Shown: positions 20,206-33,010, numbered from the stretch's first letter. The stretch is 57,981 bases of DNA from Selenomonadales bacterium (GCA_018335585.1 JAGXRZ010000063.1:1-57981), one strand, 5' to 3'. Notes: a model not told the origin generated them from the sequence alone. Made by a program: numbers and translations.

Positions 20206-20235
20206 ACGGTAGATCACGAAAGGGTGTGTTTGCGG

Positions 20236-21045
20236 GTGACATATGACCGAGGCATTGCGTTGCTTTATGAGAAAGCCAACCGCTATAGAGATAAGATTGC
20301 AGCTGCACGTCCGTCAAGTGCACGCGAGGCCAAGAACCTCGACGAGTATTTCAAGATAGGGCTTACCTTCTCTAGCAATGCTCTGGAGGGTAACACGCTG
20401 ACCATCACCGAAACGAAGGTGCTGCTTGAAGATGGACTGACGGTAGGGGGCAAGCCTATAAGAGACTACTATGAGGCGACCGGCCACGCAAAGGCCTACG
20501 ACTTCATGCTGACCTTAGCAAGAGACCGCAACACTCCGCTTTCAGAGGAGCAGATATTAAAACTCCACAGGCTCTTCTATGCTCTCCTTGACGAAGACAA
20601 CGCCGGGGTCTACCGTCAGGTCAGCGTCTTTATCTCGGGAACCGACTATGTGCCGCCGGGACCGGATGTGGTGCCTGCCGCGATGCAGGTTTTTGTGGGG
20701 GAAATGAATGCACTGAGGAGATCAGTTCATCCTATCGAGTATGCGGCACGCCTTCACAAGGGCTTGGTCGACATTCATCCGTTTGTCGACGGTAATGGCC
20801 GCACGGCGCGCTTGCTCATGAACTTAGCGCTGGTCCAAGATGGCTTTGGTATTGCCATCATCCCGCCAGTGCTCCGCGGGGAGTATATCGATGCTCTGCG
20901 TGCGGCGCAACGGGCCAAAAATCCGGATGATACGCCATTTTTGAGGCTCATCGCTGAATGCGTGATTGAAACTCAGAAGGACTATTGCCGGTTGCTCCAG
21001 TTGCCGACGAGGGACGAAATCGGGGAAGGCTTGTTGCGCACCTGA
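20236..21045 (+). CDS. fic: Fic/DOC family adenylyltransferase (class II, N-terminal inhibitory motif)
   Basis: The start is taken as GTG 20236, matching the copy at 31832 (both 269 aa); TTG 20230 has better spacing to AAAGGG. The catalytic motif HPFVDGNGRTAR is complete at 181-192. The inhibitory motif (S/T)xxxE(G/N) appears as S47-NAL-E51-G52, so this is an autoinhibited class II Fic enzyme, which transfers AMP from ATP to target proteins when the inhibitory helix is released. A beta-flap segment (SVFISGTDYVPPGPDVVPA) precedes the active site. It follows the antitoxin-like gene and precedes an array of hairpin repeats and a serine recombinase. A near-identical copy lies at 31832 and a truncated one at 6861. 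Confidence 0.92.
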   Translation: MTYDRGIALLYEKANRYRDKIAAARPSSAREAKNLDEYFKIGLTFSSNALEGNTLTITETKVLLEDGLTVGGKPIRDYYEATGHAKAYDFMLTLARDRNTPLSEEQILKLHRLFYALLDEDNAGVYRQVSVFISGTDYVPPGPDVVPAAMQVFVGEMNALRRSVHPIEYAARLHKGLVDIHPFVDGNGRTARLLMNLALVQDGFGIAIIPPVLRGEYIDALRAAQRAKNPDDTPFLRLIAECVIETQKDYCRLLQLPTRDEIGEGLLRT

Positions 21046-21130
21046 CACCACCCCGGCCTGCCCGGCAGGCGGGTGCTTGACGCAGAACGAGGGCACGGAT
21101 ACTATTAGGTGGACAATCGGTTTAATCCAC

Positions 21131-21240
21131 GGTGTTTCGCCACCTATAAGAGCGAGTCGTGTATCCGGGTGTTTCGCCACCGACAAGGGCGAGTGGTCTA
21201 TTCGGGCGTTTCGCCGCCGTTAAGGGCGAGTTGTAATGCA
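21131..21240 (+). repeat. Three tandem 37-bp hairpin repeats
   Basis: Units start at 21131, 21168 and 21205 with consensus GGTGTTTCGCCACC-nn-AAG-RGCGAGT followed by about 11 less conserved bases. Each unit can fold as TCGCC...GGCGA. The array is directly followed by a terminator at 21239. A two-unit version lies at the same position in the 31.8-33 kb module. Possible roles are resolvase binding sites (res-like) or a repeat RNA. Confidence 0.75.
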
Positions 21241-21271
21241 ACAGGCACGGGCCAGCCGTGCCTGTTGTTTT
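21239..21271 (+). terminator. Strong terminator after the hairpin array
   Basis: CAACAGGCACGG (21239-21250), loop GCCAG, CCGTGCCTGTTG (21256-21267), then TTTTCG. Shared with the copy at 32800. Confidence 0.8.
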
Positions 21272-21281
21272 CGACGCAAGG

Positions 21282-21305
21282 CCCATTAGGGTATCCCCTA
21301 GTGGG
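21282..21305. repeat. Palindrome upstream of serine recombinase
   Basis: CCCATTAGGG (21282-21291), TATC, CCCTAGTGGG (21296-21305); one mismatch. It may be a recombinase crossover or binding site. Also present in the third module (about 32841-32865). Confidence 0.55.
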
Positions 21306-21416
21306 ACTGTTTGGCGTTGTCCCGTAGAGATTGAGCCGTATTAAGTGGGATATCCCAAATCATTTTGTGAATTCTTTGGTACAGTGCAGGGATACAGGAG
21401 AGGTGGAGAGAACTAT

Positions 21417-21983
21417 ATGCTAGTTGGATACATACGCGTTAGCACTGCTGAACAAAACACGGCTCGACAAGAGTCTTTAATGCGCGACCTTGGCGTCGAG
21501 AAGGTGTTTGTTGACCATGCCAGCGGGAAGGATTCTGCTAGGCCGGAACTCAAAAAGCTCCTCGACTTTGTGCGGGAAGGCGATTCGGTGGTCGTGGAGA
21601 GCGTGAGTCGGTTTGCGAGAAATACGCGCGAACTGTTGCATCTAGTGGCACTGCTGCATGAGAAGCGAGTGGAGTTTATCAGCCGAAAGGAAAACATCGA
21701 CACGAATTCTCCCGCCGGCAAGTTTATGCTGACTGTTTTCGGGGCTATGGCCGAGCTTGAACGGGATTATATACTCCAACGGCAAGCCGAAGGCGTAGCG
21801 ATCGCCAAGAGGCTGGGAAAGTATAAGGGCCGGAAGAAAATCGAGGTCGAAAAAGCTAAATTCCGCAGCGTTTATGAGGACTGGAAGACAGGGAAGACAA
21901 CGGCGGTCAAGGCGATGGCCCGACTTAACCTTACGCGAAGTACATTCTACCGACGAGTTCGGGAGTATGAGGCGGGCCAATGA
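21417..21983 (+). CDS. Serine recombinase (resolvase/invertase family)
   Basis: ATG 21417 after GGAGAGGTGGAGAG. The 188-aa protein has the resolvase catalytic domain with nucleophile Ser in YIRVSTAEQNTARQ, the SRFARNTREL segment and GKFMLTVFGAMAELERDYI (E helix), then a C-terminal HTH (GKTTAVKAMARLNLTRSTFYRRV). This is the Tn3-resolvase/Hin-invertase size class, which cuts and rejoins DNA at short inverted crossover sites. It lies downstream of the hairpin array and palindrome, its likely substrates. It may have shuffled the repeated fic modules. A truncated copy is at 32898. Confidence 0.92.
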   Translation: MLVGYIRVSTAEQNTARQESLMRDLGVEKVFVDHASGKDSARPELKKLLDFVREGDSVVVESVSRFARNTRELLHLVALLHEKRVEFISRKENIDTNSPAGKFMLTVFGAMAELERDYILQRQAEGVAIAKRLGKYKGRKKIEVEKAKFRSVYEDWKTGKTTAVKAMARLNLTRSTFYRRVREYEAGQ

Positions 21984-22052
21984 TGCGCCCTGGTTCGGTT
22001 GTTCGATTAGCAATGTCGGAGCGTCGCATCAATGTGACAAGGAGGTAGCTTT

Positions 22053-23024
22053 ATGACGCGCGATGATGGTAACTTGCCATCGTTTTCAGTAGTATCATAC
22101 TTCTGCGGCTGTGGCGGTTTGGATTTGGGCTTCCGCGGGGATTTTCAGTATCGGGGAGAGGCTTACCCAAAATTACCTTTTGAGATAAAGGCGGCATTCG
22201 ATAACAATGCTGCATGCATCGAAACCTACAATCGTTTTTTTGGCGAACACGCACAAATGGTAGACTTATCTGCTGCTGACGCTAGAACAATTGTAACCTC
22301 CGATTTGTTGATAGGGGGATTCCCTTGTCAAGAGTTCTCCTCGTGTGGGCCTCTTGGTGGGCTTGACTCTGAACGAGGGCAACTTTATAAAGCGCTCATC
22401 AGGTATATGGAGGTGCACCAGCCAAAATTAGTAGTCGGAGAAAACGTCATCAACCTAGAGCGAATGGAAAAGGGTAAGGTCAAGGAGGCTATTGTCAACG
22501 AGCTCCAAGGGGCCGGGTATAAAGTCGAGGTGTGGAAGCTTTACGCTCCCGACTATGGTATTCCTCAGAGACGAACCCGGTTGTTCTTTATTTGCGTGCG
22601 TGCCGACCTCGATGGGTTTCCGGCGCAACCAAGGGCTGATTTCATACACGAACAGCGGAGTATTGAATGGGCTATCGGCGACCTGGTGGAGGTGACGGAT
22701 GAGAGTGTTCCTAACCAGAGTCAGTATTTCGGGGCGTCGAGGGCGAAAAGGGGGAATGGGCAGGGTGATGAAAGCAGCAAAAGGGACAAGCCTGCATATA
22801 CAATACGGGCCAACCCTAAGTCGCGAGTTCAGTTTCATTACTCGCTTGACCGTCGTCTAACAGTCAGAGAGTGTGCGAGGATTCAGACGTTCCCAGATGA
22901 CTTCGTTTTCACTCATGCTGCCACTTCAAGCATATCGCAAATAGGCAATGCGGTGCCACCAGTGCTGGCTTATCGCGTGGCATCCTCCATAGCTGAATAC
23001 ATGAAAAGATTAAGAGAGGTGTAA
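22053..23024 (+). CDS. DNA (cytosine-5) methyltransferase
   Basis: ATG 22053 with AAGGAGG at about 22040. All main C5-MTase motifs are present: motif I FCGCGGLDLGF (17-27), motif IV GGFPCQEFS with catalytic Cys92, motif VI GENVINLE (129-136), motif VIII PQRRTRLFF (171-179) and motif X QIGNAVPPVLAYRVA near 300. The target-recognition region is short (about 190-260), giving 323 aa. It is the first gene of a tight four-gene unit with a GHKL ATPase and a nuclease-helicase, so it probably marks host DNA to protect it. Confidence 0.92.
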   Translation: MTRDDGNLPSFSVVSYFCGCGGLDLGFRGDFQYRGEAYPKLPFEIKAAFDNNAACIETYNRFFGEHAQMVDLSAADARTIVTSDLLIGGFPCQEFSSCGPLGGLDSERGQLYKALIRYMEVHQPKLVVGENVINLERMEKGKVKEAIVNELQGAGYKVEVWKLYAPDYGIPQRRTRLFFICVRADLDGFPAQPRADFIHEQRSIEWAIGDLVEVTDESVPNQSQYFGASRAKRGNGQGDESSKRDKPAYTIRANPKSRVQFHYSLDRRLTVRECARIQTFPDDFVFTHAATSSISQIGNAVPPVLAYRVASSIAEYMKRLREV

Positions 23025-23027
23025 AAA

Positions 23028-25412
23028 ATGGGGGGGCATGCTTCGGTTGATATTACCCCAAAACCGCGAATTCTGAGGACGCTAGGAGATATTCCGTTTC
23101 AGCCGTGGCAATGCCTAGCGGAGTTGATTGATAACTCGATCGACGCATTTCTCGCGAGCGAGGCAAGTGGGGAAAATGGCAAAGAGCAGAGAATTGTGGT
23201 CAACTGGTCGAATGACTCTGTCGGAACGGGTGACCGCACGGTGGAGGTTTCGGACAATGCGTGCGGGATGACCCTAGAACAACTACAGAACGCAGTGACT
23301 GCGGGATATACCAGTAATGACCCCATAAACCATTTGGGGCTCTTCGGCATGGGCTTCAACATAGCGACCGCGCGCCTCGGCGAGGTGACTACTATAAGGT
23401 CGACCTGCGCCGGTGATACCCAGTGGGTCGAGCTGACTATTGACTTTGGTGAGTTGATCAAGGCAAGGCGCTTTCTCGCTCCTGTTAGGATGCTGCCAAA
23501 AGACAATCCACTTGAGTCAGGGACAAAGATAATCATCTCCCAGCTGAAAGCCGGTATCTCTGATACCATGATTGCTAAGGAGAGCGATATCAGAAGGCAA
23601 TTGGAGTCAATCTATACCCCATTACTCACGACGAAGGATATAATGGTGCTAGTTAAGGGGCGGCAGCTGTCGCCCCGGAACCATTGCGTCTGGTCGGATG
23701 CCCGCTATGTGGTTCACAATCAAGCGAATGTCCCAGCAAGGGTGGACATTGACCGTGATCTAGGACACTCCCTATTCGATACCGAGAAGAATTGCTATCT
23801 CACAGAGGATGAGGCTGAGCCGTATTACACTGCTCAGTCGACCGGCGAGACCCTCCCCGGGAACATTGTGGAGCGAAACAAGCGCCTTACCGGTTGGCTG
23901 GGCATTCAACGTTACGCCGATCCGAACGATTACGGCATCGATTTTGTCCGTAACGGGCGCAAAATAAGGATTGCAGACAAGTCCCTCTTCTTCTACGACA
24001 ATCCCTTTACTGGAGCGAAAGAACTTCAATACCCTGTTGAGCTCGGATCAACTATCGGTGGCCGTATCGTGGGTGAGCTGCATGTGGATTACTTACTGCC
24101 GGTCTATCAAAAGAACGACTTTAACAAAGAGGATACTTCATGGGCTCAGACGGTCGAGGCGATTTGTGGGGTGGGTCCGTTCCTGCCTCAAAGGCGTAAA
24201 GCATTGGGTTTTCCTCCGGAGGTTACTTCACCGTTGGGAGTGCTGGCAAATGCCTATCGCCGTGTCGACTCTGGAACGAAGTGTTTATTTGCGCCGAATG
24301 ACAAGGCGAAAGAATACGCTGGATATTTTCGGAGCGGACGACGTGAGTATATTGATGATAGCCTTTGGTGGAAAGCCGCCCAAGAGGAAGACCAGAAACG
24401 TAGTACCGGGGGAACGAGGTTGACAACAGCGGTGAATCCAGGCGACGCGCCCTCCGACGATCCTAGTTCATACCTTCGGGGGAGTATGGGTTCAACTATC
24501 GGAAGCGGCAGCACACCTTCGATACCTACGGTGCCAAGTCCTCCTCTAGTGCCAGTGGTGACATCGCCTGCAATGGCGACATCTAAGCTTGATGAGCTTA
24601 TTCGTAACTCTGCCCAAGTTGGGCAGCTAACTGGGAAATATAGCTTCGGCAGAGCAGCCCCACTAAATGTTCGGGCTTATGAGCTGAAGATCGGCACAGA
24701 AATTCTCGCAAACGGTGAGCGCAAGCCCTGCTTCTTTTCATCAAGCGGCATTGACTGCACTTTTGTTTACGACCCGGCGCATCCCGTCTTAGCACAGTTC
24801 CCAATCAGCCCAAAGGAGCTGCTGCTCCAATATCTAGCCGAGAAGCTAAAGGCCCGAGACAACCTTGCTGATGTGGTTGAGGTGTTCTCTACCCTCGTTC
24901 AGAACACAATGCCAGAGGCGAAGATTGACCGACAGTCATTACAGGATCGGGCGGCGAAGGCCTTTGCCACGTTGCGGGAAAAGATGGTCGATGCACTGAG
25001 ACCGCAGGCTATTAGCGTACTGCAGTGTATACATGAGTCCACTGGCGACGTGGAGGACACCGTAAATCGGATGCTCTTCAACCCAGCGCTGATTCAACGC
25101 TTCCAGACATGTCAGGAGAGCGGATATGATGCGTTGGAGTACGTGCCGGAAAAAGCCCTCTTGCGCCTCGTTGACAGGTTCCCCGAACGGGTTTTCGATG
25201 GCAAGGTGGTCACTGCTCCATACACAAGTATTAGTTTCTCGGATGAGAAAGCTACGGAGCGGAGCCGTAATGAGTCAAAAGAGCGTGTTATGTCGTTCTT
25301 AAAGGACGCACTTCGGGTGATGGCAAATACAGGTTTTGGGCAGCGTGACTTGAAGAACGAGCTGTCTCGCGCCTCGCTGAGCATCGACTTTCTGTTGGGG
25401 GAGTTGGTGTGA
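23028..25412 (+). CDS. MORC-like GHKL (HSP90-type) ATPase, 794 aa
   Basis: Begins 3 bp after the methyltransferase stop, with AGAGAGGTG upstream. The Bergerat ATP-binding fold is clear: N box ELIDNSIDAF (32-41), G1 DNACGM (76-81) and G2 GLFGMGFN (104-111), then an S5-like domain with the conserved Lys region (LLPVYQKNDFNKEDTSW). A Pro/Ser/Thr-rich linker (about 480-530) separates a helical C-terminal domain. MORC-type ATPases in bacteria occur in restriction-modification-like operons and are thought to clamp or loop DNA. It overlaps the next gene by one base. Confidence 0.85.
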   Translation: MGGHASVDITPKPRILRTLGDIPFQPWQCLAELIDNSIDAFLASEASGENGKEQRIVVNWSNDSVGTGDRTVEVSDNACGMTLEQLQNAVTAGYTSNDPINHLGLFGMGFNIATARLGEVTTIRSTCAGDTQWVELTIDFGELIKARRFLAPVRMLPKDNPLESGTKIIISQLKAGISDTMIAKESDIRRQLESIYTPLLTTKDIMVLVKGRQLSPRNHCVWSDARYVVHNQANVPARVDIDRDLGHSLFDTEKNCYLTEDEAEPYYTAQSTGETLPGNIVERNKRLTGWLGIQRYADPNDYGIDFVRNGRKIRIADKSLFFYDNPFTGAKELQYPVELGSTIGGRIVGELHVDYLLPVYQKNDFNKEDTSWAQTVEAICGVGPFLPQRRKALGFPPEVTSPLGVLANAYRRVDSGTKCLFAPNDKAKEYAGYFRSGRREYIDDSLWWKAAQEEDQKRSTGGTRLTTAVNPGDAPSDDPSSYLRGSMGSTIGSGSTPSIPTVPSPPLVPVVTSPAMATSKLDELIRNSAQVGQLTGKYSFGRAAPLNVRAYELKIGTEILANGERKPCFFSSSGIDCTFVYDPAHPVLAQFPISPKELLLQYLAEKLKARDNLADVVEVFSTLVQNTMPEAKIDRQSLQDRAAKAFATLREKMVDALRPQAISVLQCIHESTGDVEDTVNRMLFNPALIQRFQTCQESGYDALEYVPEKALLRLVDRFPERVFDGKVVTAPYTSISFSDEKATERSRNESKERVMSFLKDALRVMANTGFGQRDLKNELSRASLSIDFLLGELV

Positions 25413-27070
25413 TGAACTTCTATACGCAAGACATTTCCGAAGGGAACAACTGGAAAGGCCTTGTACGTGCGGTAGCGAGAATGATGGCACATATCGGATG
25501 GAAAGACACTGCCGTTATTGACGGCTCTGGAGATATGGGGGCAGACTTATTGGCGATGCGCGACGAGGGGGGAAAGGTTCTTTCCTGGGTCGTTCAGTCA
25601 AAAGCGGTGGCGGGAGACAGATACATTGGGCCAAGTGCAATGCAGGAGGCGGTGACCGCCTTGTCCTTTTATGGGGCAGAAATAGCGGCCGTCGCTACTA
25701 ATGGCGAATTCACGCACACTGCCAAGGTTCGGCAAAAACAACTGGAGACGCATGGCTATAGGCTGAAGCTTTGGAATGGGGCATTTATCAAGAATGTGAT
25801 TGACCAAATGCCAAACGAAAGTGCAGCCCTCAGAGAGCTTCGACCCTATCAAGAAGGAATCGTCAACAAAGTAATAAAGGCTTTTGACGAAGGCGGTAAG
25901 AAGGCGTTTTATATTGTCGCTACTGGCCTAGGCAAAACAGTGATTGCAGCGACCATCACGCAGCAATTGTGGGAGCGCGGGTGTCGTCGCATTCTGGTGC
26001 TTTGCCATCAGACAGACTTGGCGCAACAACTTGAACAGGGCTTCTGGCCGCAGCTTACGAAAGAGGTTCCCACATCCGTCTTCTTTGACGGGATACCTCC
26101 TAAGAATACAGAGGGAGTTGCTTTCGGTCTATATCAAAGCCTGTACGGCTACCTACCGGGCATCGAAGAAAGCCGATTTGATGCTGTAATAGTTGACGAG
26201 GCACACCACGCGATGGCGTATGGGTTTAGGGCCTGCCTTGACCATTTGAAGCCGAGGTTTCTTATTGGAATGACTGCTACGCCCTGGCGGGGAGACGGGC
26301 AGAACCTCAACACTGTCTTTGGCGAACCGCTAGCCAAGGTCTCCTTAGTTGACGGCATGGCGATGGGGTATTTGTCAAAAGTGGACTACCGTATCCTCTG
26401 CGATAATGTGGACTGGGACGGCATGCTAAGTATCAGCAAACAGAAGCTCTCCATTAAGGACTTAAATAAGCGCCTCTTTCTCCCTCAGCGCGACGAAGCC
26501 GTTATCGCTGAAATTCAAAACATCGTCAATACGGTGCCGACCCCACGAATTGCAGTATTCTCTCCTTCGATTGAACACAGCAACCGTTTCGCAGCGATGC
26601 TATCAGCCGCCGGAGTCCCGACCGCCGCCTTGTCTATCACGGACAAAGCGGAGCGGCGCAAACGGCTCCTCGGTTTTTCGGCTGGAAATTATAGTGCGGT
26701 CACGGCAGTCGATGTGATGAACGAAGGCATTGACATACCGGATGTGAATATCCTCGTGTTCCTGAGGGCTACGCATTCAAGGCGCATATTTGTACAGCAG
26801 CTTGGGCGTGGGCTACGGCTTTCGGAGGGGAAGGACAAGGTTATCGTTTTGGACTTCGTCTCCGATATCCGAAGGATGGCGGAAATGGTCGGGATGAATA
26901 ACGAGGGCAAAGAAAAAGGGCGAGAAAAAGAGATTTTGTTCTTAGAGCAAGGTTTTGTTTCCTTCTCCGATGCTAGGGTGGAGCGCTTTGTGAATATATG
27001 GATTGAGGACATGGCTGATCTCAGTGGTTCTGATGACGAGGTCAAGCTTACGTTCCCGGAGGGGTTCTAA
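25412..27070 (+). CDS. Mrr-like restriction endonuclease fused to SF2 helicase
   Basis: ATG 25412 overlaps the ATPase stop (TGATG), with GGGGGAG upstream. Residues 10-135 form an Mrr-type PD-(D/E)xK nuclease: GDMGADLLA (Asp45) and WVVQSKAV (Q62-S-K64), where Gln replaces the acidic residue as is common in Mrr enzymes. Residues 140-490 are an SF2 helicase: Walker A ATGLGKT (170-176), VIVDEAHHAM (DEAH 262-265), GMTATPWRGDG and QQLGRGLRLSEGK (motif VI). A single chain therefore can translocate on and cut DNA, probably guided by the methylation state. Confidence 0.88.
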   Translation: MNFYTQDISEGNNWKGLVRAVARMMAHIGWKDTAVIDGSGDMGADLLAMRDEGGKVLSWVVQSKAVAGDRYIGPSAMQEAVTALSFYGAEIAAVATNGEFTHTAKVRQKQLETHGYRLKLWNGAFIKNVIDQMPNESAALRELRPYQEGIVNKVIKAFDEGGKKAFYIVATGLGKTVIAATITQQLWERGCRRILVLCHQTDLAQQLEQGFWPQLTKEVPTSVFFDGIPPKNTEGVAFGLYQSLYGYLPGIEESRFDAVIVDEAHHAMAYGFRACLDHLKPRFLIGMTATPWRGDGQNLNTVFGEPLAKVSLVDGMAMGYLSKVDYRILCDNVDWDGMLSISKQKLSIKDLNKRLFLPQRDEAVIAEIQNIVNTVPTPRIAVFSPSIEHSNRFAAMLSAAGVPTAALSITDKAERRKRLLGFSAGNYSAVTAVDVMNEGIDIPDVNILVFLRATHSRRIFVQQLGRGLRLSEGKDKVIVLDFVSDIRRMAEMVGMNNEGKEKGREKEILFLEQGFVSFSDARVERFVNIWIEDMADLSGSDDEVKLTFPEGF

Positions 27071-27642
27071 TGCCGAAAGCGTTGCCGACAGGTGTTGCGG
27101 CCCAGCTTAAACGAGCAGTATTCAAAAAGGCCGACCTACACGGATATGCCTTAAAAGGGCGCGTAGAGAACGGACGTTTTATGGACGACCTTGTTAACGA
27201 TCCGGAGATTGGCGGCATAATTGGGGAGTATGTTGCAGCAGACAAGGTGAGGGTGTATATCAAGGACGGCATTCTCAACGCCTATACGAAGAGGAAGGCG
27301 GAACAAGTTCTTCGGGGGCACGACCCAGTCCAAGTTATCCGTAGTACATTCGGTGCGGGTGAGGTTGCCATTGTGGAGAATAAAGGAGAAATTGTCGTGG
27401 GCCGTTCCTCAGACGGACGATTCTTCATCGTTGGCAGGGGCACAGTGCTGAAATGGGAAAGTGCGCTTCGGAAAGTTCTTGAGTATATCGCCCGTCTCAA
27501 GAGGAATCACGTTGACGAGAATTACCCTTCCATATGTCTTCAACTGGCGGTCATTAACTATGGCATCACCGAGGGCGACAAGAACCAGATTACCAGAGCA
27601 CTAATGGCCGTTGGCGTTAAGGTGTACTTCTGCTCGTCGTAA
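27070..27642 (+). CDS. Unknown fourth protein of the MORC-type cassette, 190 aa
   Basis: ATG 27070 overlaps the helicase stop by one base (TAATG) and has GGAGGGG just before. No family recognised. The protein is mixed alpha/beta with segments FKKADLHGYALKGRVENGRF, GAGEVAIVENKGEIVVGRSSDGRFFIVGRG and LQLAVINYGITEGDKNQI; no transmembrane helix or catalytic motif stands out. Translational coupling indicates it is part of the system, perhaps as specificity factor or regulator. The FKKADLHGY... start followed by a beta-rich middle could be a small DNA-binding or scaffold fold; this is a guess. Confidence 0.72.
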   Translation: MPKALPTGVAAQLKRAVFKKADLHGYALKGRVENGRFMDDLVNDPEIGGIIGEYVAADKVRVYIKDGILNAYTKRKAEQVLRGHDPVQVIRSTFGAGEVAIVENKGEIVVGRSSDGRFFIVGRGTVLKWESALRKVLEYIARLKRNHVDENYPSICLQLAVINYGITEGDKNQITRALMAVGVKVYFCSS

Positions 27643-27992: not shown

Positions 27993-29174
27993 CTAGCGGC
28001 GACTCACTTCTCGCCCTGTGTTGTCAAGCAGCACCGCCGGGTCACCCTCGTTGTTCCAAATGTGCGATCTCGTCCACACTAGCCGCCCTGGCCCCGCTGT
28101 TGCATTGGGGCCGCTGACAACCATGATGCTGGATCCCATAGCAATTACCGTGCCCGCGGGGAAGGTAAACCTTTGATTGCCGTTCTCGCTTACCAAAACC
28201 CAACCAGATATATCTACACTGGTTTGGCCGCGATTAGCAATAACCACTCGTTCTCCTGCTAAGTCCACTTCAGTGATGGCTACTGTTGTAGTTGCTGGCG
28301 GGGCAGTGGCCGCCCACAGGCCTTTGTTAGCATTGCGTGCTTCTCGCTCCAATGTCACAAACATCTCGGAGTACTTAACGTTCGGAGCAATTGTCATGAT
28401 CCTTGCGAAGCCCTCTAGCAAGAGACGAGCATTGAACATCTTCGCCCTGACTTCTGCCACGGTGTCACTGGTCGGCTGTTCAAGCCAAATGTACGCCAAT
28501 AGACGACCGAATCGGTCCCGTTCAGACACGTCCAGTTCTAGATGAACGGTTTTACCCTCTAGCTGTTGCCTGGTGAACGCCGCGGCTTCTTTGCCGAAGG
28601 GTTCGATCTCGGTGGTGCTCTCCGGAGTATCCACGCCGATCAGGCGCACCCTCTCCTCTTGCCCAGAACTGAGACGCACACGTATCGTATCGCCGTCGGT
28701 TATACTTGTCACTTGTACAGCTGAGGTGCGAATAGCCGTCGTGGCGGAGTCTACGGTGACGGTGCGAGTCTGTTCATTCCAGCCAACACGGGCACCCAAG
28801 CTCTCAGCAATGAACCTAGCCGGAACTAACGTGCGTCCGCCGACAATAGTCGGCGGCACATCCAGCGTGACTCTAGCGGTGTTGACGGTTGCAGACGGGT
28901 TGTCGATTTGCAGAGTGATGGTCGTTTCAGCCCTTCTCCCCGTAATAGTCCGTGTGGCATCATTCCACTCCACGGATGCTCCTAAGGCCTCGAAGATCGC
29001 GCGTAGTGGGACTAAGGTGCGGCCACTTCTGATGACTGGCGGCACATCCATTACCAGCGCTCTTCCGTTTACAACTACGCTAATGGGCTGCTCCGCTAAC
29101 CCAAGTGAAGTAGTGAAGACTAGGAGCATCGCCACGGTAACCGCAGACAGTCTTCTAGCACCGTCTCTTAACAA
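27993..29174 (-). CDS. Secreted thermonuclease with copper-amine-oxidase-N-like repeats and lamin-tail domain
   Basis: The start is TTG at 29174, seven bases after GGAGGAGG, giving a clean signal peptide (MLRDGARRLSAVTVAMLLVF); longer frames begin in non-signal sequence. After cleavage come two tandem stalk-type repeats (VNGRALVMDVPPVIRSGRTL / LVPLRAIFEALGASVEWND and ...VPARFIAESLGARVGWNE), an SNase domain (ITDGDTIRVRL, VRLIGVDTPE, FGKEAAAF, FGRLLAYIWL) and a lamin-tail domain (SVDISGWVLVSENG). It is a 393-aa paralogue of 11121-11972 with added N-terminal wall-associating repeats. Likely surface-held nuclease. Confidence 0.88.
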   Translation of the reverse strand: MLRDGARRLSAVTVAMLLVFTTSLGLAEQPISVVVNGRALVMDVPPVIRSGRTLVPLRAIFEALGASVEWNDATRTITGRRAETTITLQIDNPSATVNTARVTLDVPPTIVGGRTLVPARFIAESLGARVGWNEQTRTVTVDSATTAIRTSAVQVTSITDGDTIRVRLSSGQEERVRLIGVDTPESTTEIEPFGKEAAAFTRQQLEGKTVHLELDVSERDRFGRLLAYIWLEQPTSDTVAEVRAKMFNARLLLEGFARIMTIAPNVKYSEMFVTLEREARNANKGLWAATAPPATTTVAITEVDLAGERVVIANRGQTSVDISGWVLVSENGNQRFTFPAGTVIAMGSSIMVVSGPNATAGPGRLVWTRSHIWNNEGDPAVLLDNTGREVSRR

Positions 29175-29424
29175 TGGATTTCCTCCTCCCGATTTGCGAA
29201 CATGGCTCAACCTACCGAGCGGACGTTTCGCTAGGATTATCCCTTGGGCAACCGTGCTGGACATCAGCCCCATTATATCAAACGGGCGTTGCGTTTCAAT
29301 CACGCAAGGTGGCAATCCAAGACATGTGCAGCACATTTAGAGCCGAGGAGGCTCCGATCTGGGATCTCGGGGAGATGGGCAGGACAGCAGGCTAGGTGAT
29401 TGCAGGGAAGGAGGTTGCTAAAAG

Positions 29425-31749: not shown

Positions 31750-31831
31750 TGTGAAGCGGCAGGAGATGCGAGGCCGCTGGAATGTCTGTGGCAGGATGAT
31801 TGAACGATACACCGTGGAAGGATGTGTTTGG

Positions 31832-32641
31832 GTGATATGCGATCGGAGCCTTAAGTTGCTCTATGAGAAAGCCAACCGCTATAAAGATCAGATTGCAGCA
31901 GCACGTCCGTTAAGCACACGCGAGGCCAAGAACCTCGACGAGTATTTCAAGATAGGGCTTACCTTCTCTAGCAACGCTCTGGAGGGCAACACGCTGACCA
32001 TTACCGAAACGAAGGTGCTGCTTGAAGACGGGCTGACGGTAGGAGGCAAGCCTATACGAGACTATTATGAGGCGGCCGGCCACGCCAAGGCCTACGACTT
32101 TATGCTGACCTTAGCAAGAGACGGCAACACTCCGCTTTCAGAGGAGCAGATATTAAAACTCCATAAACTCTTCTATGCTCTCCTCGACGAAGACAACGCC
32201 GGAGTCTACCGTCAGGTCAGCGTCTTTATCTCGGGAACCGACTATGTGCCGCCGGGACCGGATGTGGTGCCTGCCGCGATGCAGGTTTTTGTGGCGGAAA
32301 TGAATGCGCTGAGGGGCTCAGTTCATCCTGTCGAGTATGCGGCACGCCTTCACAAGGGCTTGGTCGACATTCATCCGTTTGTCGATGGTAATGGCCGCAC
32401 GGCGCGCTTGCTCATGAATTTAGCGCTGGTCCAGGATGGCTTTGGTATTGCCATCATCCCGCCGGTGCTCCGCGGGGAGTATATCGATGCTCTGCGTGCG
32501 GCGCAACGGGCCAAAAACCCGGATGACACACCATTTTTCAGGCTCATCGCTGAATGTGTGATTGAAACTCAGAAGGACTATTGTCGGTTGCTCCAATTGC
32601 CGACGAAGGACGAAATCAGGGGAGGCTTGTTGCGCACCTGA
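31832..32641 (+). CDS. fic: Fic family adenylyltransferase, second intact copy
   Basis: GTG 31832 starts a 269-aa protein about 95 percent identical by eye to the one at 20236, with the same inhibitory SNALEG (47-52) and catalytic HPFVDGNGRTAR (181-192). The 30 bases upstream (GATTGAACGATACACCGTGG) also match the antitoxin-fic junction at about 20203, so the duplicated block begins at the end of the antitoxin gene, which itself is absent here. The antitoxin was lost or never copied. It is followed by two hairpin repeats, a terminator and a truncated recombinase. Confidence 0.9.
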   Translation: MICDRSLKLLYEKANRYKDQIAAARPLSTREAKNLDEYFKIGLTFSSNALEGNTLTITETKVLLEDGLTVGGKPIRDYYEAAGHAKAYDFMLTLARDGNTPLSEEQILKLHKLFYALLDEDNAGVYRQVSVFISGTDYVPPGPDVVPAAMQVFVAEMNALRGSVHPVEYAARLHKGLVDIHPFVDGNGRTARLLMNLALVQDGFGIAIIPPVLRGEYIDALRAAQRAKNPDDTPFFRLIAECVIETQKDYCRLLQLPTKDEIRGGLLRT

Positions 32642-32728
32642 CAGCAGACCGTCTAGGGTCCGGCAGGCGCGGGCTTGACGCAGAACGATGGCATATGTAC
32701 TACTGGGTGGGGAGCTGGTTTAATCCAA

Positions 32729-32799
32729 GGTGTTTCGCCACCGCTAAGAGCGAGTCGTGTATCCGGGCGTTTCGCCGCCGTTAAGGGCGAATTGTAATG
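32729..32799 (+). repeat. Two tandem 37-bp hairpin repeats (copy of the 21131 array)
   Basis: Units start at 32729 and 32766; both closely match the first and last units of the three-unit array at 21131. The middle unit is missing, consistent with unequal crossover between units. Confidence 0.7.
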
Positions 32800-32832
32800 C
32801 AACAGGCACGGGCCAGCCGTGCCTGTCGTTTT
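32800..32832 (+). terminator. Terminator after second hairpin array
   Basis: AACAGGCACGG and CCGTGCCTGTC pair around GCCAG, followed by GTTTTCG. Copy of the terminator at 21239. Confidence 0.75.
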
Positions 32833-32897
32833 CGATGCAAGTCCCATTAGGGTATCCTCTAGTGGGTTTGTATGGCGTTGTCCCATACGAGTGGCGT

Positions 32898-33010
32898 CTC
32901 TTTTTCGGATATGTGCGCGTTAGCACTACTGAACAGAACACGGCTCGCCAAGAGTCTTTGATGCGTGACCTTGGCGTGGAGAAGGTGTTTGTTGACTACG
33001 CGAGCGGTAG
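32898..33010 (+). pseudogene. Serine recombinase remnant (first ~37 codons)
   Basis: LFFGYVRVSTTEQNTARQES followed by LMRDLGVEKVFVDYASGR matches the intact recombinase at 21417 up to residue ~37, then ends. The start codon and the ~60-bp leader are deleted (compare 21320-21416), and what follows is unrelated, so it is dead. Confidence 0.85.

What the first reader, a model, noticed from the sequence alone, without database searches (positions are those of the whole stretch)
22053..27642. Four-gene MORC ATPase restriction-like cassette
A C5 methyltransferase, a MORC-like GHKL ATPase, an Mrr-nuclease/SF2-helicase fusion and an unknown 190-aa protein are joined by 3-bp and 1-bp junctions. MORC-type ATPases were predicted in restriction-modification-like operons from genome mining, but this composition with a fused nuclease-helicase and the small fourth protein may be an undescribed defence type.
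Basis: partly seen in the sequence, partly recalled or inferred. Interest (0 to 1): 0.85.

Follow-up and report, generated by a model that had tools for sequence, protein, structure and literature searches.

The report
MORC–Mrr-helicase restriction-modification cassette
Four linked genes in this bacterium very probably form a DNA-cutting immune system, one member of a widespread, untested family that pairs a DNA-marking enzyme with a bacterial relative of the animal and plant MORC gene-silencing ATPases; the main new part is a small fourth protein that nobody seems to have named.

Summary
The four genes are real and exactly where reported. They form one translationally coupled operon: a C5 cytosine methyltransferase (MT), a MORC-type GHKL ATPase, an Mrr-nuclease/SF2-helicase fusion (HEL) and a 190-aa protein (P4). 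The layout is not unique. In 90 loci with a MORC, a HEL and enough downstream DNA, P4 follows HEL in 86 and an MT is present in 89, in four different arrangements. Catalytic residues of all three enzymes are essentially invariant.

The composition MORC + nuclease-fused SF2 helicase + cytosine methylase ± Vsr was already predicted as a restriction-modification (RM) operon by Iyer et al. 2008, so "undescribed defence type" is mostly wrong. I found no experimental work on it.

What looks new: (1) P4 is a conserved family with no Pfam, NCBIfam, PADLOC or PHROG model and no close structural match, sometimes fused to PIN nucleases. (2) The methyltransferases use essentially two recognition-domain types, each tied to one core clade, even where the methyltransferase gene was apparently exchanged. 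(3) One homologue is probably M.DrdVII (reported 5mC motif YCGCGR), which makes the family testable.

Best reading: a multi-subunit RM-like system with fixed site specificity. Restriction itself is inferred, not shown.

The parts
22053..23024 (+). MT: C5 cytosine DNA methyltransferase, 323 aa; PCQ cysteine C92, ENV E130; recognition domain about residues 186-262 (22608-22838)
   Evidence: Pfam DNA_methylase E 3.5e-61; nearest solved structure M.HaeIII; C92 conserved in 97/99 aligned MTs, the other 2 gapped; recognition domain of type 2
23028..25412 (+). MORC: GHKL ATPase + S5-type domain, 794 aa; N-box E32/N36/D39, D76xxxG80; MORC-specific motif GIDFVRNGRKI at residues 303-313 (23934-23966); disordered linker about 462-514; unknown C-terminal domain about 525-794
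   Evidence: HATPase_c_3; sequence-profile top hits MORC3/MORC4/SMCHD1; AF2 pLDDT 87.7; Foldseek top hits MORC3, MORC4, MORC2, SMCHD1
25409..27070 (+). HEL: Mrr-type nuclease domain (residues 14-126, about 25448-25786; D46, Q63xK65) fused to SF2 helicase (residues 143-471, about 25835-26821; Walker A K176, DEAH 263-266, QxxGRGLR 463-470)
   Evidence: Pfam; D46, Q63, K65, K176, D263, E264 and H266 unchanged in every ungapped homologue (95-96 of 96); nearest solved helicase 7clg, then RadD and type I R subunit
27070..27642 (+). P4: 190-aa basic protein (pI 9.5), helical N half and alpha/beta C half, invariant K65
   Evidence: no family hit; AF2 pLDDT 94, pTM 0.85; K65 in 88/88 members, D66 in 84/88; pI
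22039..22052 (+). Shine-Dalgarno (AAGGAGG) and spacer of the operon's first gene
   Evidence: sequence

Best explanation
A multi-subunit restriction-modification-like defence system. MT places 5-methylcytosine at a fixed short motif in the host genome (self mark). MORC, HEL and P4 form the restriction machine: basic P4 binds DNA and/or adapts the complex to the site; MORC, an ATP-dependent dimerising clamp, engages and holds or loops incoming DNA; HEL uses its SF2 motor to move along the DNA and its Mrr (D-QxK) nuclease to cut it when the sites lack the mark. Shown by sequence: gene content and order, intact active sites, conserved co-occurrence, fixed methyltransferase recognition-domain type. 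Inferred: complex formation, the self-mark logic, what each subunit recognises, cleavage, and protection from phage.
For: Strict MORC-HEL-P4 order in 86/90 loci and an MT in 89/90, in four arrangements (52 upstream same strand, 21 downstream same, 10 upstream opposite, 6 downstream opposite), so the link is not just operon inertia. Catalytic residues of MT, MORC and HEL are essentially invariant. Core proteins co-diverge (within clade B, Spearman of MORC_N vs HEL motor 0.89, P4 halves 0.79-0.83). MTs fall into two main recognition-domain groups that match the two core clades (61 core B with type 1; 33 core A with type 2 once three truncated MORC loci are read as A). In clade B the MT differs while the core stays alike (55 of 244 pairs with over 70% HEL-motor identity have under 45% MT catalytic-domain identity, often with the gene on the other side), yet the type-1 signature is kept in 58/61. 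5mC repair enzymes accompany the genes: Vsr or a HhH-GPD glycosylase in 89 of 107 loci. pDrdI of Deinococcus wulumuqiensis 479 holds one C5 methylase, that of the cassette, and its published 5mC methylase M.DrdVII has motif YCGCGR. The cassette is sporadic: P4 in 2 of 101 genomes searched (the window's own and one distant) and in none of the 7 others of its own genus or family; also on plasmids and in viral-contig collections. One locus adjoins genes of a CBASS type.
Against: No wet-lab data on restriction for any member. The Mrr domain and the nearest solved motor (7clg, which I take to be SauUSI) belong to proteins that usually cut modified, not unmodified, DNA. About 17 of 61 type-1 loci also carry an Eco29kI-like REase next to the MT, so the core might not be the restriction enzyme there. 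M.DrdVII is matched to the locus by elimination only. Shared recognition domains may partly reflect common descent.
Confidence: 0.68

Rival explanations
1. Modification-dependent (type IV-like) restriction: HEL, with MORC and P4, attacks DNA carrying foreign modifications, and the MT is there for another reason.
For: Mrr_cat domain and a motor closest to 7clg / PADLOC mREase_IV models.
Against: The MT is kept in 89/90 loci and its recognition domain is conserved even where the MT gene looks exchanged; a 5mC-cutting enzyme would attack its own host. Mrr-type domains also occur in modification-blocked systems (own knowledge).
Confidence: 0.12
2. The MORC-HEL-P4 core is an add-on to an ordinary type II RM pair, processing or spreading damage after a separate restriction enzyme has cut.
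For: Eco29kI-like REase beside the MT in about 17 of 61 type-1 loci; Cfr10I/Bse634I-family REase in the related MT-MORC-HEL locus L115.
Against: No type II REase was recognised near the window cassette, and no Eco29kI-like one in any of the 33 type-2 loci; HEL carries its own intact nuclease.
Confidence: 0.1
3. A dedicated repair or maintenance machine for 5mC deamination (MutL-like ATPase + helicase + Vsr), not defence.
For: Vsr or a HhH-GPD glycosylase in 89/107 loci; MORC is a MutL relative (weak MutL hits).
Against: No Vsr was found in the window genome, yet it keeps the core; sporadic, mobile distribution; an Mrr-type nuclease is not a known mismatch repair part.
Confidence: 0.05
4. Silencing without cutting: MORC compacts or clamps unmarked incoming DNA, as eukaryotic MORCs compact chromatin, and the nuclease is secondary.
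For: MORC module closest to MORC3/4/2 and SMCHD1 in sequence and fold.
Against: Mrr D-QxK and the helicase motifs are essentially invariant, which argues that cutting and translocation matter.
Confidence: 0.05

Closest known systems
Prokaryotic MORC restriction-modification operons, first set (Rad25-like SF2 helicase), Iyer et al. 2008 (PMC2292703)
   Same: MORC GHKL+S5 protein, SF2 helicase of the Rad25/XPB/RadD group fused to a restriction-endonuclease-fold nuclease, cytosine methylase, frequent Vsr, patchy laterally mobile distribution
   Different: P4 is not mentioned in the text I could read; the two fixed methyltransferase recognition types were not reported; the supplementary gene lists were not available to me
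Mza (mzaABCDE) and Mza-like paraMORC systems
   Same: GHKL/MutL-like ATPase beside a cytosine methylase and a nuclease; Mza is named an anti-phage system (NCBIfam; PMC9523054)
   Different: Mza-like operons carry a Z1-domain protein and DUF4420 nuclease (seen here in L118), no P4; the window MORC is far from MzaB (12 bits against a cutoff of 850)
VcSduA (Shedu with GHKL ATPase domain, PMC12137116)
   Same: GHKL ATPase coupled to a PD-(D/E)xK nuclease, shown to be anti-phage
   Different: single protein with DUF4263 nuclease; no helicase, no methylase
SauUSI-like type IV and CglI/NgoAVII-type ATP-dependent restriction
   Same: SF2 translocase with a nuclease; CglI/NgoAVII pair it with a DNA methylase and separate subunits (PMC4267653 abstract)
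   Different: different nuclease families; no MORC, no P4; SauUSI lacks a cognate methylase (own knowledge)
Eco29kI and Cfr10I/Bse634I type II RM
   Same: homologous REases sit next to MTs of some related loci
   Different: ordinary two-gene systems; absent near the window cassette

Membership tests
Prokaryotic MORC ATPase | GHKL ATP-binding motifs intact | tested here: met
   E32, D35, D39, D76, G80 in 102/102 and N36 in 101/102 homologues
Prokaryotic MORC ATPase | S5 domain with GhXhhpXXRhl motif | tested here: met
   GIDFVRNGRKI at 303-313 fits 10 of 11 positions (K312 where a hydrophobic residue is expected); R308, G310, R311 conserved in 101/102
Prokaryotic MORC ATPase | closer to eukaryotic MORCs than to other GHKL families | tested here: met
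   profile E 3e-10 to MORC3 against 5e-3 to Hsp90 family; Foldseek top hits MORC3/MORC4, TM about 0.5 by target
Iyer 2008 first-set MORC RM operon | Rad25-like SF2 helicase fused to RE-fold nuclease next to MORC | tested here: met
   RadD, XPB/RAD25 and type I R subunit among best solved matches; Mrr_cat at N-terminus
Iyer 2008 first-set MORC RM operon | DNA methylase, mostly cytosine, and often Vsr nearby | tested here: met
   MT in 89/90 loci; Vsr in 79/107 loci; none found in the window genome
Restriction-modification system (functional) | restriction of unmodified DNA, blocked by the cognate methylation | not testable with these tools
   needs plaque, transformation and cleavage assays
Restriction-modification system (functional) | active cognate methylase | tested here: inconclusive
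   PCQ/ENV residues intact; homologue M.DrdVII reported as 5mC YCGCGR, matched by elimination; window MT untested
Mza | Z1 protein and MzaB-type ATPase | tested here: not met
   no Z1 gene in the operon; MzaB hit E 0.04, 12 bits
PD-(D/E)xK fold for P4 | RE-like fold with catalytic D and (D/E/Q)xK | tested here: inconclusive
   weak structural hits to EndoMS, SfsA, Card1, MUS81-EME1, Rpb5-type proteins, none at E<=0.001; no catalytic triad visible in the predicted strands; P4 vs Mrr profile only 2.8% probability

The most novel reading that the evidence does not exclude
A distinct, widespread multi-subunit RM class in which a MORC clamp and an Mrr-translocase are directed by a previously unnamed adaptor family (P4) to one of only two fixed cytosine-methylation motifs; methylases can be exchanged provided they keep the motif, and P4 can alternatively direct PIN nucleases.
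Probability: 0.35. Interest if true: 0.75.

Novelty: new variant of a known kind. Interest (0 to 1): 0.55.

Why it matters
What MORC ATPases do in bacteria has been open since 2008, and eukaryotic MORCs (gene silencing, human neuropathy genes) are thought to descend from such operons. This work gives a tractable handle: a defined four-part unit, an unnamed conserved subunit to assay, and a cultured strain (Deinococcus wulumuqiensis 479) whose homologous methylase probably has a published motif. The fixed recognition type is unusual for RM systems, whose specificities normally diversify (own knowledge), and suggests that the restriction complex itself reads the site.

Tried and rejected
P4 as a known family: Pfam, NCBIfam, PADLOC and PHROGs negative; PDB profile search gave only a chance hit, a solved chain labelled adiponectin. 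P4 as an active PD-(D/E)xK nuclease: fold hits point weakly that way but no catalytic residues are conserved, so not claimed. P4 related to MORC C-terminus, Vsr, Eco29kI or the glycosylase: hhalign probabilities all below 1%. Genome scan seeded with P4 alone found nothing; seeding with the MORC alignment worked. Core component co-varying with the MT recognition domain (to find the site reader): partial correlations in clade B were -0.08 to 0.19, uninformative because the recognition domain keeps its type. PIN_8 count of 59 loci was an artefact of profile drift into P4; with the PIN half alone only 6 loci hit. Promoter/terminator scan was at chance level. Predicting the window MT's motif from genome composition was not attempted, because the genome holds four C5 methylases. 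A search with flanking DNA in relatives gave no clear empty site.

Full report
OBSERVATION. The four ORFs are present at the stated coordinates and on one strand. The operon starts with a strong ribosome site. The MT-MORC gap is 3 bp; MORC/HEL and HEL/P4 overlap as TGATG and TAATG, the usual sign of translational coupling. Pfam confirms a C5 methylase, a GHKL ATPase and an Mrr nuclease + SF2 helicase fusion; P4 matches nothing, also not in PADLOC, NCBIfam or PHROGs.

A WIDESPREAD CASSETTE. A scan of one genome per species with the MORC alignment gave 207 confirmed relatives, of which the best 80 are held; viral contigs gave 16 more and plasmids five with a strong MORC match, of which four (two Rhodobacterales, Rhodococcus, Deinococcus) carry the set. 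Hosts include Clostridia, Bacteroidales, Planctomycetes, Acidobacteria, Anaerolineae, spirochaetes, Proteobacteria and many Actinomycetes. In 90 loci with MORC, HEL and DNA beyond HEL, P4 follows HEL in 86; an MT is in the held DNA in 89. The loci are not independent (several are near-duplicates) and were found through MORC, so these are conditional frequencies. From the other side, P4 was found in 2 of 398 genomes of the window's phylum, both with MORC, and both plasmids with a P4 match have the MORC. Four further MORC-like genes in that sample lie in related operons without a recognised P4: MT-MORC-HEL with other parts (a HhH-GPD glycosylase in L115 and L116, and in L115 an unknown 272-aa protein and a Cfr10I/Bse634I REase), or Mza-like operons with a glycosylase (L117) or Z1 and DUF4420 genes (L118).

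PARTS. MT: nearest solved enzyme is M.HaeIII. MORC: the sequence profile finds MORC3, MORC4 and SMCHD1 before other GHKL proteins, the predicted model (pLDDT 87.7) matches MORC3/MORC4/MORC2/SMCHD1 best, and the motif that Iyer et al. use to define MORCs is present at 10 of 11 positions. HEL: D46, Q63xK65, Walker A lysine and DEAH are unchanged in all ungapped homologues; nearest solved motor is 7clg, then RadD and a type I R subunit. P4: basic (pI 9.5; family median 8.8, while MORC and HEL are acidic), confident model (pLDDT 94), no structural match at E<=0.001. The weak hits often are restriction-endonuclease-like folds, but no active site is conserved. Its one invariant residue is K65, with D66 in 84/88. 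P4 is fused behind a PIN_8 nuclease as a second copy in L045, L057 and L077, and a PIN_8 gene follows P4 in L003 and L004. I read this as an adaptor or DNA-binding role; that is inference.

METHYLATION SPECIFICITY. MT recognition domains form two main groups: type 1 (61 loci) and type 2 (33 loci, with the window), three others aside. Type 1 goes with core clade B and type 2 with clade A without exception once three truncated MORC loci are discounted. In clade A the recognition domain is as conserved as the catalytic part (median identity 0.71 vs 0.67). In clade B MT divergence hardly follows the core (Spearman 0.25, while MORC follows HEL at 0.89), and loci with about 75% HEL-motor identity can have MTs at about 36% identity on the other side of the core, yet the type-1 signature stays in 58/61. 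The simplest reading is that the methylase was exchanged but its target had to stay, which is what a restriction complex with its own fixed target would demand. Shared ancestry of the recognition domain is a partial alternative.

MOTIF AND REPAIR. Plasmid pDrdI of D. wulumuqiensis 479 has a single C5 methylase, the one in the cassette L006; the strain's methylome paper lists one 5mC enzyme on pDrdI, M.DrdVII, YCGCGR (PMC6430315). The match is by elimination. About 17 type-1 loci carry an Eco29kI-like REase beside the MT; Eco29kI cuts CCGCGG (own knowledge), which fits YCGCGR. Vsr or a HhH-GPD glycosylase (by context a T:G mismatch enzyme) accompanies 89 of 107 loci, as expected where 5mC is kept in the genome. 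No Vsr was found in the window genome (assembly about 96% complete).

MECHANISM. I commit to a multi-subunit RM-like system: MT marks self; MORC-HEL-P4 attacks unmarked DNA. Shown: content, order, intact catalytic residues, linkage to a methylase with fixed recognition type. Inferred: complex formation, site reading by P4 or MORC C-terminus, cleavage and protection.

NOVELTY. The composition was predicted in 2008; searches of the open literature found no later experiment or name for it, though subscription papers, REBASE and supplements were out of reach. P4 and the fixed recognition types appear new. I therefore call it a new variant of a known kind.

Noticed in passing
window 20224-21526 and 31823-33007: A Fic gene plus the start of a serine recombinase is duplicated as direct repeats (83-91% identical) about 11.5 kb apart, flanking the cassette; the second recombinase is truncated to 114 aa. 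The cassette may lie on a mobile or recombined segment.
   Followed up: partly
L115 4646-12698: Related operon MT-MORC-HEL with a 272-aa unknown protein in place of P4, a Cfr10I/Bse634I REase and a HhH-GPD glycosylase: a second subtype.
   Followed up: partly
L057 12678-14219, L077 12677-14224, L045 3503-5212: A second copy of P4 fused to the C-terminus of a PIN_8 nuclease near the cassette.
   Followed up: partly
L006 14170-18975: Nucleotidyltransferase, E2/UBC, Mov34 and SAVED genes (CBASS-like) directly after the cassette on plasmid pDrdI.
   Followed up: no
L080 12609-13955 and similar actinobacterial loci: A protein with a sigma-70 region 4 domain often lies next to the cassette (9 of 94 adjacent ORFs scanned); possible regulator.
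   Followed up: no
window 27993-29336 (-): Unusual three-domain protein: copper amine oxidase N-terminal domain, staphylococcal nuclease and lamin tail domain.
   Followed up: no
G000 contigs C46, C2, C13: Three further C5 cytosine methylases in the same genome.
   Followed up: no
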